Below, piece after piece: positions 44,501 through 50,500 of a stretch of 64,000 nt of DNA. This DNA is from Lineus longissimus (Eukaryota > Nemertea > Pilidiophora > Heteronemertea > Lineidae). The translations under genes and the position numbers were made by a program. Location: positions 15,609,501-15,673,500 of the forward strand of contig NC_088323.1 in assembly GCF_910592395.1 (NCBI RefSeq), given 5' to 3'. Below the pieces are notes generated by a model. The model was not told the DNA's origin, made no database searches, and saw only the letters and a list, made by a program, of their open reading frames with translations. The stretch's first letter is position 1. Every line of letters starts with the position of its first letter.

Positions 44501-47500
44501 CTTTTTCAAAGACAACAAGTGCTCAATGTGACTTCGTCTACGTCCGTAGTACCACAAATAAACAAATCCAACAGTTAAATTTTGGCACTTATAAGAGCGC
44601 AACCACAAATTAAACCTGCTGCAGGAATTTTCTGGGTTAAAGTTTCATGGATGAGTTATATCTTGAATCGTGGCCATTTTGCAGAATGTTTCTAAACAAT
44701 TTTGTTTGATTTAGATCGATCAGGATAGGAACAGTACCTTTGGTTCTGCACATAACTCCTTTGAGGTCAAATCATTCAGGCCTTCAATCTTGGTCTTTTT
44801 TATTGTCTTAAAGGCAGCGATAGAATTTCTAATGCTGTTGCGTCATTCGGATCCAAATCCAGGCGACATGGTGGTTTGCCGAGGTTTGCATTCACATTTC
44901 TTGGTGGCTCTTGGTTCAATTCCTCCTTGTAAAGTCCACCAACAAAGGCCTTCATGTGTGCTGCCACCTTGTGAGATTTAGCTGCATTAATGTTAACCCC
45001 TTGTAGCAGGTTGACCTTGGGCATCCAGAATATTGGGATGGATCCACGTGAGAGATAGTACTCCAGCTGAGAGTACAGTATGTAGGCCATCTCGACCAGG
45101 GGGCGCTCATGGTGAAGGAAGTCTTCCACGTTGTGCATGAAGACAGTTTTCAGAAGATAACTTGTGAGGAATTTGTCGACAAAATGTAACATGCCGTCAT
45201 CTTTCACAACAACTTGACAAACGACCGGATCCCTGAGACATTTTGCCAAGATGTAGGCATTCTTTACCCTGGGTTGTAAGTCCTTGATGTGTGCGACCTC
45301 AAGCAGAGAAAATGTGACACGGTAGAGTCTCTCACGTTCAGCTTCTTTGAAAGTCTTCCCGAATGAGCTCTTTTGATGTGGAGGTCTTACAACCAACTGG
45401 TAGCCCTGTTTCTTGAGGTCATCATATCCCATCATCCAGGTTTTTCTAATTGCATCATCCGGCCAGTCATTTACTTGAAGCACGGGTACAACGTCTATCG
45501 ACACCACCAGACTGCGCTGTTCGTCCTCCTTCCATCTCAGTTGGATGACCGTGCTTGCACTGCCACCACCAGCAACAGCTAAAGGGGTTGAAACGATCAT
45601 GTCATCACTTGAATCAATTTGAGACCAAATAAAAGAATGAATCGACTTACTGCTATCAAGAGTATTCAATCCGTCACACTTTCTGTAACCATGGCAAACA
45701 TCTGTGATGTGACTTGTGGGAATATCATCTATGTCCTTGACTGTGAAGTCAAATTCATCAGGGAATCCCACCTTGGTTAATTCGGCTGAACCTCCAGTGA
45801 GTGTCACAATCGATGAGAGTTTAGCAAGGATTGCCCTAATTTTGGTATCAATGGTTACGTTCAGCTCATCCAGTTTATCCTGATTTAGGCTTTTGACCGA
45901 ACCCAAACCTGGGAATTCGATCAAACTGAAAGTGGAAATTCTTTTCCTCTCTTCTACTTCATGCGGTGAAAGGGCCATCCTGAAGATATCCCACTTAATG
46001 TCTTCACTAAAAGCAAGGTAGTGGTGGGGATTTCGACCACTCAAATCCACTGCATGTTGGTTTGATCCAGCAATCAAGAGATACTTGTAAATATCTATAG
46101 ATCCACTTTGAGAAAAGCATTGTACAAATTGGACATCGTTAATGAAAGACAATGTTGCACCCAATGAGTGGAGCATTCGGACACATTCAAAATGACTATG
46201 TGAGATAGCTGTGGCTAAAGGAGACTGTCCGTTTTGACCTACATAGTCTAAACCTGGTGTTTTGTTCATTTTCGCTAGAAAAATTACAACCTCTTTCTGT
46301 CCATGTTTCGCTGCCAGCAGTAACCATATTTCAATGGTTTTCTTAAGGTCGGCTTCATCAGTGATATCTTTCAAAAAGTATTCAATGACATTAATCTGTC
46401 CGTGTATCACACAGTTGTCCCGAGAAGAAAATCCATCGTTATCCTTACTCTCGATGTCTGCGCCATGTTCAAGCAGAATCTGGAAAATTTCTCTTTGACC
46501 TACTGTTGCCGCTTGGTTTAATGGAGATTTCCCCTTGTTATTATCTTTACTCTCTATGTCAGCTTTCGGTTGGTGCAATGTCTCCATTGAGTTTTCACAA
46601 TCTATAGTTGTGTGGAGTGGGCTGCTCAGAACACTTGCCTCGGTCATTTCACCTCTTTCTAAAAGAAGTTTCACAACACTCTCATGTCCATTCTCTGATG
46701 CAATCCAAAGGGGAGAACGCCCTTTATCTGATTTACTCTCTATCAGTGCTCCTCTGTCTAGGAGGAGTCTCACAACACTCTTATGTCCATCATATGATGC
46801 AATCCAAAGGGGAGAACGCCCATCACGTGATTTACTCTCTATCAGTGCTCCTCTGTCTAGGAGGAGTCTCACAACCCTCTCATGTCCATTCTCTGATGCA
46901 ACAAAAAGGGGAGAACGCCTATCATCTGATTTACTCTCTATCAGTGCTCCACTGTCTAGGAGGAGTTTCACTACACTCTCATGTCCATTATATGATGCAG
47001 CCAAAAGGGGAGAAAACCCATCAACTGATTTACTCTCTATCAGTGCTCCTCTGCCTAGGAGGAGTCTCACAACACTCTCATGTCCATTATATGATGCAAT
47101 CCAAAGGGGAAAACGCCCATCATCTGATTTACTCTCTATCAGTGCTCCTCTGCCTAGGAGGAGTCTCACAACACTCTCATGTCCATTATATGATGCAATC
47201 CAGAGGGGAAAACGCCCATCATCTGATTTACTCTCTATCAGTGCTCCTCTGCCTAGGAGGAGTCTCACAACACTCTCATGTCCATTATATGATGCAGTCC
47301 GAAGGGGAGAACGCCCATCATCTGTTTTACTCTCTATCAGTGCTCCTCTGTCTAGGAGGAGTCTCACAACACTCTTATGTCCATTATATGATGCAATCCA
47401 AAGGGGAGATTCCCCATCATCTGATTTACTCTCTATCAGTGCTTCTCTGTCTAGGAGGAGTTTCACAACCCTCTCATGTCCATTATATGATGCAGTCCAA

Positions 47501-50500
47501 AGGGGAGAACACCAATCATCTGTTTTACTCTCTATTTGTGCGTCTCTGTCTAGGAGGAGTTTCACAACACTCTCATGTCCATTATATGATGCAGTCCAAA
47601 GGGGAGAATACCCACCAACTGATTTACTCTCTATTAGTGCTCCTCTGTCTAGGAGGAGTCTCACAACACTCACATGTCCATTATCTGATGCAATCCAAAG
47701 GGGAGAAACCCCTTTATCTGATTTACTCTCTATCAGTGCTCCTCTGTCTAGGAGCAGTTTCACAACCCTCCCATGTCCATTCTGTGATGCAGTCCAAAGG
47801 GGAGAAAGCCCACCATCTGATTTACTCTCTATTAGTGCATCTCTGTCTAGGAGGAGTTTCACAACACTCACATGTCCATTATCTGATGCAGCCAAAAGGG
47901 GAGAAAACTCATCATCTGATTTACTCTCTATCAGTGCACCTCTGTCTAGGAGGAGTCTCACAACCCTCTCATGTCCATTATCTGATGCAGTCCAAAGGGG
48001 AGAACGCCCATCATCTGATTTACTCTCTATTAGTGCTCCTCTGTCTAGGAGGAGTTTCACAACACTCTCATGTCCATTACGTGATGCAGTCCAAAGGGGA
48101 GAACGCCCATTATCTGATTTACTCTCTATCAGTGCTCCTCTGTCTAGGAGGAATTTCACAACACTCTCATGTCCATTATATGATGCAGTCCAAAGGGGAG
48201 AACGCCTATCATCTGATTTACTCTCTATGATTGCACCTCTTTTCAAGAGAGTTTTTACTACCCTTTTCTGTCCTTTCTGTGATGCAACAAAAAGGGGAGA
48301 ACACCCATTATTATTTTTGCTTTCAATATCTGCGCCTTTTGATAGCAACAACTTTACAGTACGATTATGTCCTCCCCCGCTCGCTAGGCTCAGTGGGGTG
48401 TCGCCATCTGTATCCTTTGTCTCCAGATCTGCACCTTCCCTCAAGAGTCGCTTGACCTTTCTCAACTTTCCTTTAAAAGCTGCCCAACCGAGAGGAGTGC
48501 ATCCTGACATTTTCTTTTGGAAACGATATTTGTGCCATTTCATTCAATGTACACAGTCCTTGGTGGTTGCAGTCGGTTACACCAGGCCTTTCTTCACTTC
48601 AAAAACTTTTTGTCTGTTGCTTTAACTTTGCCCTGTAAATCAAGAGTCCCGATATTAGCAACATGTGACCTAAAATCTGCATAGCTTAGCCCTGTAAATC
48701 AAATAAGAGTCCCGATATTAGCATCATGTGACCTGAAATCTGCATAGCTTAGCCCTGTAAATCAAATAAGAGTCCCGATATTAGCATCATGTGACCTGAA
48801 ATCTGCATAGCTTAGCCCTGTAAATCAAATAAGAGTCCCGATATTAGCAACATGTGACCTGAAATCTGCATAGCTTAGCCCTGTAAATCAAATAAGAGCC
48901 CCGATATTAGCAACATGTGACCTGAAATCTGCATAGCTTAGCCCTGTAAATCAAATAAGAGCCCCGATATTAGCAACATGTGACCTGAAATCTGCATAGC
49001 TTAGCCCTGTAAATCAAATAAGAGTCCCGATATTAGCAACATGTGACCTGAAATCTGCATAGCTTAGCCCTGTAAATCAAATAAGAGTCCCGATATTAGC
49101 AACATGTGACCTGAAATCTGCATAGCTTAGCCCTGTAAATCAAATAAGAGTCCCGATATTAGCATCATGTGACCTGAAATCTGCATAGCTTAGCCCTGTA
49201 AATCAAATAAGAGCCCCGATATTAGCAACATGTGACCTGAAATCTGCATAGCTTAGCCCTGTAAATCAAATAAGAGTCCCGATATTAGCAACATGTGACC
49301 TGAAATCTGCATAGCTTAGCCCTGTAAATCAAATAAGAGTCCCGATATTAGCAACATGTCACCTGAAATCTGCATAGCTTAGCCCTGTTAATCAAATAAG
49401 AGTCCCGATATTAGCAACATGTCACCTGAAATCTGCATAGCTTAGCCCTGTTAATCAAATAAGAGTCCTGATATTAGCAACATGTGACCTGAAATCTACA
49501 TAGCTTAGCCCTGTAAATCAAATAAGAGTCCCGATATTAGCAACATGTCACCTGAAATCTGCATAGCTTAGCCCTGTAAATCAAATAAGAGTCCCGATAT
49601 TAGCAACATGTGACCTGAAATCTACATAGCTTAGCCCTGTTAATCAAATAAGAGTCCCGATATTAGCAACATGTAACCTGAAATCTGCATAGCTTAGCCC
49701 TGTTAATCAAATAAGAGCCCCGATATTAGCAACATGTGACCTGAAATCTGCATAGCTTAGCCCTGTAAATCAAATAAGAGTCCTGATATTAGCAACATGT
49801 AACCTGAAATCTGCATAGCTTAGCCCTGTAAATCAAATAAGAGTCCTGATATTAGCAACATGTAACCTGAAATCTGCATAGCTTAGCCCTGTTAATCAAA
49901 TAAGAGTCCTGATATTAGCAACATGTGACCTAAAATCTGCATAGCTTAGCCCTGTAAATCAAATAAGAGTCCCGATATTAGCAACATGTGACCTGAAATC
50001 TGCATAGCTTAGCCCTGTAAATCAAATAAGAGTCCCGATATTAGCAACATGTAACCTGAAATCTGCATAGCTTAGCCCTGTAAATCAAATAAGAGTCCCG
50101 ATATTAGCAACATGTGACCTGAAATCTGCATAGCTTAGCCCTGTAAATCAAATAAGAGTCCCGATATTAGCAACATGTAACCTGAAATCTGCATAGCTTA
50201 GCCCTGTTAATCAAATAAGAGCCCCGATATTAGCAACATGTGACCTGAAATCTGCATAGCTTAGCCCTGTTAATCAAATAAGAGCCCCGATATTAGCAAC
50301 ATGTAACCTGAAATCTACATAGCTTAGCCCTGTAAATCAAATAAGAGTCCTGATATTAGCAACATGTAACCTGAAATCTGCATAGCTTAGCCCTGTAAAT
50401 CAAATAAGAGTCCTGATATTAGCAACATGTAACCTGAAATCTGCATAGCTTAGCCCTGTTAATCAAATAAGAGTCCTGATATTAGCAACATGTGACCTAA

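What the first reader, a model, noticed from the sequence alone, without database searches (positions are those of the whole stretch)
44800..48543. Ankyrin-array fused to a cGAS/Mab-21-like nucleotidyltransferase with intact catalytic acids
The sequence directly shows about 24 ankyrin repeats followed by GGS...EFDF and SIDVV at the spacing of cGAS-like enzymes. Known cGAS-like receptors use the catalytic fold itself to bind nucleic acid; a long ankyrin solenoid would add a protein-binding or oligomerising half. All three acids are kept, whereas many Mab-21 proteins have lost them. It could be an undescribed class of innate sensor.
Basis: partly seen in the sequence, partly recalled or inferred. 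Interest (0 to 1): 0.88.

Follow-up and report, generated by a model that had tools for sequence, protein, structure and literature searches.

The report
Ribbon worm ankyrin–cGAS-like enzyme family
A single long gene in a ribbon-worm genome joins a long stack of ankyrin repeats to an enzyme shaped like the human virus sensor cGAS, and it is one of about seventy related genes in that genome, parts of which appear to change unusually fast.

Summary

Beyond the finding: the window is from the nemertean Lineus longissimus. Its genome holds at least 73 loci of this domain family; in 65 the frame is stop-free in the match and 750–3205 codons long. The longest array read has 48 similar units. Units differ mostly at predicted ligand-facing positions (22 of 22 genes tested). 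In the enzyme, one 45-column segment after the catalytic E-x-D strand has excess amino-acid change pooled over five gene groups (177 replacement, 19 silent events, ω 2.9, P 6e-7); the rest pooled does not (ω 0.88). STING-like domain pieces occur in the same genome.

Best reading: a radiated, catalytically competent family of cGAS-like innate receptors, with array and hypervariable loop recognising ligand or partner and the enzyme signalling by a cyclic nucleotide. No biochemistry or expression was tested.

The parts
44800..48543 (-). Single open frame, 1247 aa, ankyrin array plus cGAS-like nucleotidyltransferase
46633..48513 (-). Ankyrin repeats of regular spacing, 19 units, residues 11-637
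46633..48216 (-). Sixteen similar 33-aa (99-bp) ankyrin units, residues 110-637; tandem array at DNA level (16.1 copies of 99 bp, 90% matches)
46057..46632 (-). Degenerate ankyrin repeats between the array and the enzyme, residues 638-829
44803..46056 (-). cGAS-like/Mab-21 nucleotidyltransferase domain, residues 830-1247
45745..45795 (-). Catalytic motif [17 protein letters not shown], residues 917-933 (E930, D932)
45613..45744 (-). Hypervariable segment HV1, residues 934-977, excess replacement changes among paralogues (pooled over five groups; P 0.065 in the window's own group)
45487..45501 (-). Third catalytic acid, SIDVV residues 1015-1019 (D1017)
48637..51450 (-). 63-bp minisatellite, about 45 copies, directly upstream of the frame; contains a 24-bp stretch found once upstream of four paralogues (88-92% identical)

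Best explanation
The gene encodes a catalytically competent cGAS-like receptor (cGLR) with an N-terminal ankyrin solenoid, one member of a large radiation in the ribbon worm Lineus longissimus. Shown: the architecture, the predicted cGAS fold of the enzyme half, retention of all three catalytic acids, family size, open frames, excess replacement change in one enzyme segment, concentration of repeat variation at predicted ligand-facing ankyrin positions, and STING-like domain pieces in the genome. Inferred: a microbial ligand, or a host protein or nucleic acid marked by infection, is bound by the concave face of the ankyrin array and/or the HV1 loop. Binding orders or clusters the enzyme, which joins NTPs into a cyclic dinucleotide (or related nucleotide) read by a STING-like receptor. 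Repeat gain, loss and exchange in the 99-bp units, plus selection on surface codons and HV1, would keep changing what the repertoire recognises.
Against: No catalytic, binding, expression or infection data. Ankyrin surface excess is not significant in the C12b (P 0.30) or C15 (P 0.30) groups by conservative event counting, so relaxed constraint explains part of it. In the window's own array alone, surface N 19: S 1 gives P 0.048 at ts/tv 2 and 0.11 at 1; all positions P 0.12 at ts/tv 2. HV1 in the window's own group is only P 0.065, and in C12a P 0.37; Fisher HV1 against rest is not significant in C12a (0.27) and C12b (0.11), and in C12b the rest of the domain also shows an excess (omega 1.54, P 0.036). 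The HV1 bounds were set after seeing the sliding-window result. Pairwise dN/dS over the enzyme is high (median 0.81 of the 90 pairs, out of 435, that passed the divergence filter), which is also what partly relaxed copies would give. Five divergent long relatives listed no Mab-21 model at E 1e-4 when scanned whole, though 24 of 25 domains match Mab-21_C at E 0.01. STING was seen only as partial exons.
Confidence: 0.6

Rival explanations
1. The enzyme half alone senses nucleic acid, as in cGAS. The ankyrin array is only a scaffold for localisation or clustering, and HV1 changes because it is a nucleic-acid or antagonist-contacting surface.
For: HV1 aligns with a human cGAS segment that holds R236 and R255 (placement of the residue numbers recalled), whose mutation weakens chromatin tethering (PMC8171060, passage). 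A review lists R236 and K254 among non-conserved residues of the dsDNA-binding sites (PMC10855445, passage). cGAS itself evolves under positive selection in primates (PMC4420275, passages). The HV1 signal is much stronger than the ankyrin signal.
Against: Repeat variation falls on the predicted ligand face in every array examined (23 of 23 rows), and C16 surface codons show N 36: S 2. A pure scaffold would not need up to 48 units that differ at those positions.
Confidence: 0.25
2. Mutational by-product: this genome amplifies minisatellites readily, the 99-bp ankyrin units spread by slippage and unequal exchange, and the extra repeats drift under relaxed constraint without a recognition role.
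For: The 64-kb window is full of tandem arrays (67 rows, some overlapping), including a 63-bp array next to the gene. Repeats in proteins generally diverge fast inside a protein (PMC5120217, abstract and one section). C12b and C15 surface codons are not above neutrality.
Against: 65 of 73 loci keep frames of 750-3205 codons open, which drift would break. Several ankyrin positions barely vary (for example 23, 15, 8). HV1, outside the repeats, shows the clearest selection.
Confidence: 0.12
3. The enzyme no longer makes a cyclic nucleotide; the fold is kept as a ligand-triggered scaffold, or transfers a nucleotide to another target.
For: Pfam Mab-21 nucleotidyltransferase model is below cut-off for the window protein, and the zinc-thumb ligands of vertebrate cGAS have no clear counterpart (read; ligands recalled).
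Against: E, D and D are retained in every sequence aligned, unlike Mab21L1/2/3, which a 2023 survey describes as lacking a predicted functional active site (PMC9980059). Core windows of the domain are under purifying selection (omega 0.26-0.5).
Confidence: 0.13

Closest known systems
Animal cGAS-like receptors with ankyrin repeats (Li et al. 2023, PMC9980059)
   Same: Mab-21/cGAS-type enzyme with intact acids fused to ankyrin repeats; large lineage expansions (over 200 cGLRs in some bivalves are reported there)
   Different: Here tens of single-frame genes with arrays of up to 48 similar units read, a localised enzyme segment with excess replacement change, and a nemertean host. The held main text, by word search, has 0 hits for 'nemertea' and 'positive selection'; I read passages only, and its tables were not seen.
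Human/mouse cGAS
   Different: 16-18% identity over the aligned part; ankyrin array in place of the disordered N-terminus; zinc-thumb ligands not evident; ligand unknown
Fungal NLRs with highly conserved ANK/TPR/WD repeats (Dyrka et al. 2014, PMC4986451, passages read)
   Same: Highly similar tandem repeats, repeat-number variation, replacement changes on the concave ligand-facing surface
   Different: Signal module there is a NACHT/NB-ARC protein with other effectors, here a nucleotidyltransferase. Their 85% internal-identity criterion was not computed here.
RNase L
   Same: Ankyrin sensor joined to a catalytic output; appears in the fold search of the ankyrin-containing model
   Different: RNase L reads a nucleotide messenger with its ankyrins and has kinase-like and RNase domains (recalled); none were found here

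Membership tests
cGAS-like receptor (cGLR) | cGAS-type nucleotidyltransferase fold | tested here: met
cGAS-like receptor (cGLR) | G[GS] ... [E/D]x[E/D] ... [E/D] active-site residues | tested here: met
   G918/S919, E930, D932, D1017; acids in 30 of 30 aligned sequences and 25 of 25
cGAS-like receptor (cGLR) | Pfam Mab-21 (PF03281) above cut-off | tested here: inconclusive
   Window protein 19.9/22.8 bits against 24.1; 18 of 25 domains match at E 0.01; Mab-21_C is above cut-off in the window protein and matches 24 of 25. Five long relatives scanned whole listed neither at E 1e-4
cGAS-like receptor (cGLR) | Synthesises a nucleotide second messenger on ligand binding | not testable with these tools
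   needs purified enzyme
cGAS-like receptor (cGLR) | STING-type receptor in the same genome | tested here: met
   PF15009 over cut-off at C11 (27.4 bits) and C16 (37.6 bits jointly in frame); weaker pieces below cut-off on C11, C9, C3; no full gene reconstructed
Vertebrate cGAS (subfamily) | Zinc-binding thumb (His-Cys-Cys-Cys; ligands recalled) | tested here: not met
   Read by eye from the profile alignment: no counterpart of the His and the Cys pair in this family's consensus
Mab21L1/2/3 developmental proteins | Predicted active site lost | tested here: not met
   All three acids kept
Fungal-type NLR with highly conserved repeats | NACHT or NB-ARC domain | tested here: not met
   No such Pfam hit in the window protein or in 5 long relatives
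RNase L | Pseudokinase and RNase domains after the ankyrins | tested here: not met
   No such Pfam hit

The most novel reading that the evidence does not exclude
Ribbon worms have built a germline-diversifying receptor repertoire by putting rapidly amplifying, similar ankyrin repeats, with changes selected on the ligand-facing side, in front of a cGAS-type messenger synthase that carries its own hypervariable loop beside the active site. It would be an animal counterpart of the self-renewing repeat receptors of fungi, with a cyclic nucleotide as output.
Probability: 0.4. Interest if true: 0.85.

Novelty: new variant of a known kind. Interest (0 to 1): 0.62.

Why it matters
The cGAS-like receptors studied so far are thought to recognise ligand mainly with the enzyme fold (established knowledge, recalled). 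A family of some 65 intact-looking genes with long, changing ankyrin solenoids suggests that animals can give a cyclic-nucleotide synthase an evolvable binding arm. It also points to an exact enzyme segment (HV1) with excess replacement change, which can be swapped and tested. If right, it makes the open question of how invertebrate cGLRs see non-nucleic-acid threats directly testable in one species.

Tried and rejected
A translation of the + strand by mistake showed only stops.

Single-sequence and ankyrin-containing searches of solved structures listed only ankyrin proteins and designed repeats among the 60 shown; cGAS appeared only when the enzyme domain was searched alone.

The first structure job, on residues 640-1247, gave a mediocre model (pLDDT 64.9). 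It still hit cGAS first, but the ankyrin-enzyme arrangement in it is not used.

Overall dN/dS as proof of purifying selection on the enzyme was expected and not found: median 0.81 of 90 pairs that passed the filter, out of 435. That led to the window scan.

Positive selection on ankyrin surface codons was tested in three groups and is significant only in the window's own C16 group (C16 P 0.006; C12b and C15 P 0.30; pooled P 0.02).

A transposon-borne origin of the gene was considered but not searched for systematically. Of the five window frames scanned with Pfam, one is a retrotransposon frame, about 30 kb away, and the family lies in clusters on several contigs.

I looked for relatives outside this species with three protein searches. 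The only proteins listed from outside it were two unnamed metagenome proteins, P0011 and P0015. The coral ankyrin cGLRs in print were not reached, so they are distant or below that sensitivity. A further genome search with a divergent member, to complete the family count, did not complete; the tool also says its counts are lower bounds, so 73 is a lower bound.

Literature searches listed no paper on this nemertean family, but the lists were capped: 20 of 40 papers shown, 15 of 19,860, 10 of 636, 15 of 151. Only listings were seen there, and the library lacks most subscription papers, so absence from print is not established.
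Full report
What is there. The frame named in the finding exists, on the minus strand (48543..44800, 1247 aa). A TGA directly precedes the ATG, so the frame starts there unless an upstream exon is spliced in further inside. Pfam reports a long ankyrin array and, at the C-terminus, Mab-21_C above its cut-off, with the Mab-21 nucleotidyltransferase model just below its own.

Where it comes from. The window lies in a 391-Mb genome of 30 contigs. Lengths of six contigs (C16, C8, C15, C3, C19, C13) equal those listed for Lineus longissimus proteins in the protein searches. 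Two others (C12, C17) differ from listed lengths by about 3 kb. I take it to be that species, perhaps another assembly version. No entry closer than 89% identity over the domain was listed in the protein database.

A large family. The enzyme domain searched against its own genome gives 88 matches, which merge to 73 loci (same strand, within 3.5 kb). In 65 of them the frame is at least 700 codons and has no stop inside the match (range 750-3205, median 1271); the other eight are short or carry stops. Clusters sit on C16, C12, C15, C17 and C8. Five long relatives checked whole by Pfam are ankyrin arrays; at E 1e-4 their enzyme halves were not listed, though they align with the family. The longest array read has 48 consecutive units by my pattern, mean DNA identity 0.88 (L045, 2425 aa). 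Protein searches listed only two unnamed metagenome proteins from outside the species.

Catalytic residues across the family. Of 50 loci then held, four gave no match to the domain and four were duplicates or fragments (L004, L008, L009, L050). Of the other 42, my pattern for the domain start missed 13; the remaining 29 and the window make 30 sequences, all of which keep E, D and D. Alignment A3 covers the window plus 24 of 42 loci, including 8 of the 13 missed. There E101, D103 and D188 (= 930, 932, 1017) are invariant in 25 of 25. L023, L024 and L027 were in neither count; L040 and L044 were seen only in the HV1 printout, with E and D present.

Evolution of the repeats. In the window's array the 16 units differ pairwise by more replacement than silent changes (pN/pS 1.78; 9.9 at six positions that designed ankyrins randomise for ligand contact, positions recalled). 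Of 47 frames examined (46 loci and the window), 23 had at least five consecutive units by my pattern and the other 24 were left out. In 23 of 23, which are 22 genes because L009 is the window's own locus, the same positions are more variable than the rest. Conservative counting, each distinct codon once per group and the most silent path taken, ts/tv 2, leaves the C16 group significant (surface N 36: S 2, P 0.006; 0.026 at ts/tv 1) but not C12b or C15 (P 0.30 each); the pooled value is P 0.02, ω 1.6. For the window array alone the surface result is P 0.048 (ts/tv 2) or 0.11 (ts/tv 1). So surface variation is clear, and positive selection is supported in one group only. Relaxed constraint after duplication is a known general effect (PMC5120217; abstract and one section read).

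Evolution of the enzyme. Pairwise dN/dS over the domain has median 0.81 in the 90 of 435 pairs that passed the divergence and length filter. A sliding comparison in five groups shows why: the segment after the E-x-D strand changes fast while the C-terminal core hardly changes. The groups are C16 with L013 (C6) and L015 (C7), C15, C17 with L030 (C5), C12a and C12b, 31 sequences in all. With one fixed rule, 45 alignment columns after that strand (residues 934-977 here), the event counts at ts/tv 2 are C16 64:11 (P 0.065), C15 28:1 (P 0.003), C17 34:1 (P 0.0004), C12a 19:4 (P 0.37) and C12b 32:2 (P 0.013). Pooled, they are 177:19, ω 2.85, P 5.6e-7, against 457:178, ω 0.88, elsewhere; Fisher 2.8e-8. 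Against the reading: Fisher is not significant in C12a (0.27) and C12b (0.11), and in C12b the rest of the domain is also above neutrality (ω 1.54, P 0.036). In a scan of 29 overlapping windows HV1 is the top one and windows in the core fall to ω 0.26-0.5. The bounds were chosen, so the P value should be read with the 29 windows in mind; it survives that. In the alignment this segment faces the human cGAS stretch that contains R236, K254 and R255 (placement recalled). Mutations of R236 or R255 weaken chromatin tethering of cGAS (PMC8171060, passage). Primate cGAS also shows positive selection on surfaces (PMC4420275, passages); whether any of its four regions coincides with HV1 was not resolved.

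Pathway. STING ligand-binding domain matches exist in the same genome: one over the cut-off on C11 (27.4 bits), one on C16 (37.6 bits with neighbours in frame), and weaker pieces below cut-off on C11, C9 and C3. L055 reads GLAWSYFFGYLSPMLPGKIQ within 1456-1629. Presence of a reader protein makes cyclic-nucleotide signalling plausible, not shown.

How it most likely works. Shown: a predicted cGAS-fold enzyme with intact acids behind an ankyrin solenoid, a large family with mostly open frames, excess replacement change in HV1 and variation on the ankyrin ligand face, and STING-like domain pieces. Inferred: ligand binding by the solenoid and/or HV1, activation by ordering or clustering, a cyclic nucleotide product, STING as reader, and an immune role. 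I put the whole chain at 0.6. The main rival, in which the enzyme senses nucleic acid and the ankyrins only place it, is at 0.25.

What is known. Ankyrin-fused cGLRs are in print (PMC9980059; passages read), as are very large cGLR radiations in bivalves. Repeat receptors with highly conserved, positively selected units are in print for fungal NLRs (PMC4986451; passages). A second survey of eukaryotic CD-NTases has no hit for 'ankyrin' in its held text (PMC10732462, word search and passages). The combination in one animal family, and the hypervariable enzyme segment, did not appear in the capped listings of my searches. I therefore call it a new variant of a known kind.

Noticed in passing
window 48637-51450: 63-bp minisatellite of about 45 copies directly upstream of the gene. 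A 24-bp stretch of its unit occurs once (88-92% identical), upstream of the frame or its expected start, in four paralogue regions (L051-L054); the units contain a TTTACAG stretch that could be a splice acceptor.
   Followed up: partly
L051, L052, L053 (5' ends of C16 paralogues): Paralogue frames begin with strongly hydrophobic stretches, in L052 from GTCGTG-like simple repeats, that could be membrane anchors; the window copy lacks one.
   Followed up: partly
P0008, P0009, P0012: An insertion of several dozen residues with a repeated DDWPDD-like motif lies between the E-x-D strand and the third catalytic acid; the precomputed Pfam list of P0008 and P0009 also names PF00275, unexplained.
   Followed up: no
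enzyme domain, windows starting 75-105 columns after the E-x-D strand: A weaker second rise in replacement changes after the third acid, clearest in C12b and C15 (pooled omega 1.4-1.7).
   Followed up: partly
C13:13589361-13601033, C20:8028979-8032134: Family copies with in-frame stops, likely dead copies.
   Followed up: no
window 10641-14135 (-): Open 1164-aa frame with endonuclease and reverse transcriptase domains, a non-LTR retrotransposon by its look.
   Followed up: no
window 33228-34067 (-) and 18230-18844 (+): Frataxin domain frame, and a TM7S3/TM198-like frame.
   Followed up: no
window 42779-43870 (+): Aldehyde dehydrogenase fragment of 42 residues shortly before a 51-bp minisatellite (42978-43856).
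   Followed up: no
window 54439-56121 and 57242-58101: Two separate arrays of nearly the same 70-bp unit.
   Followed up: no
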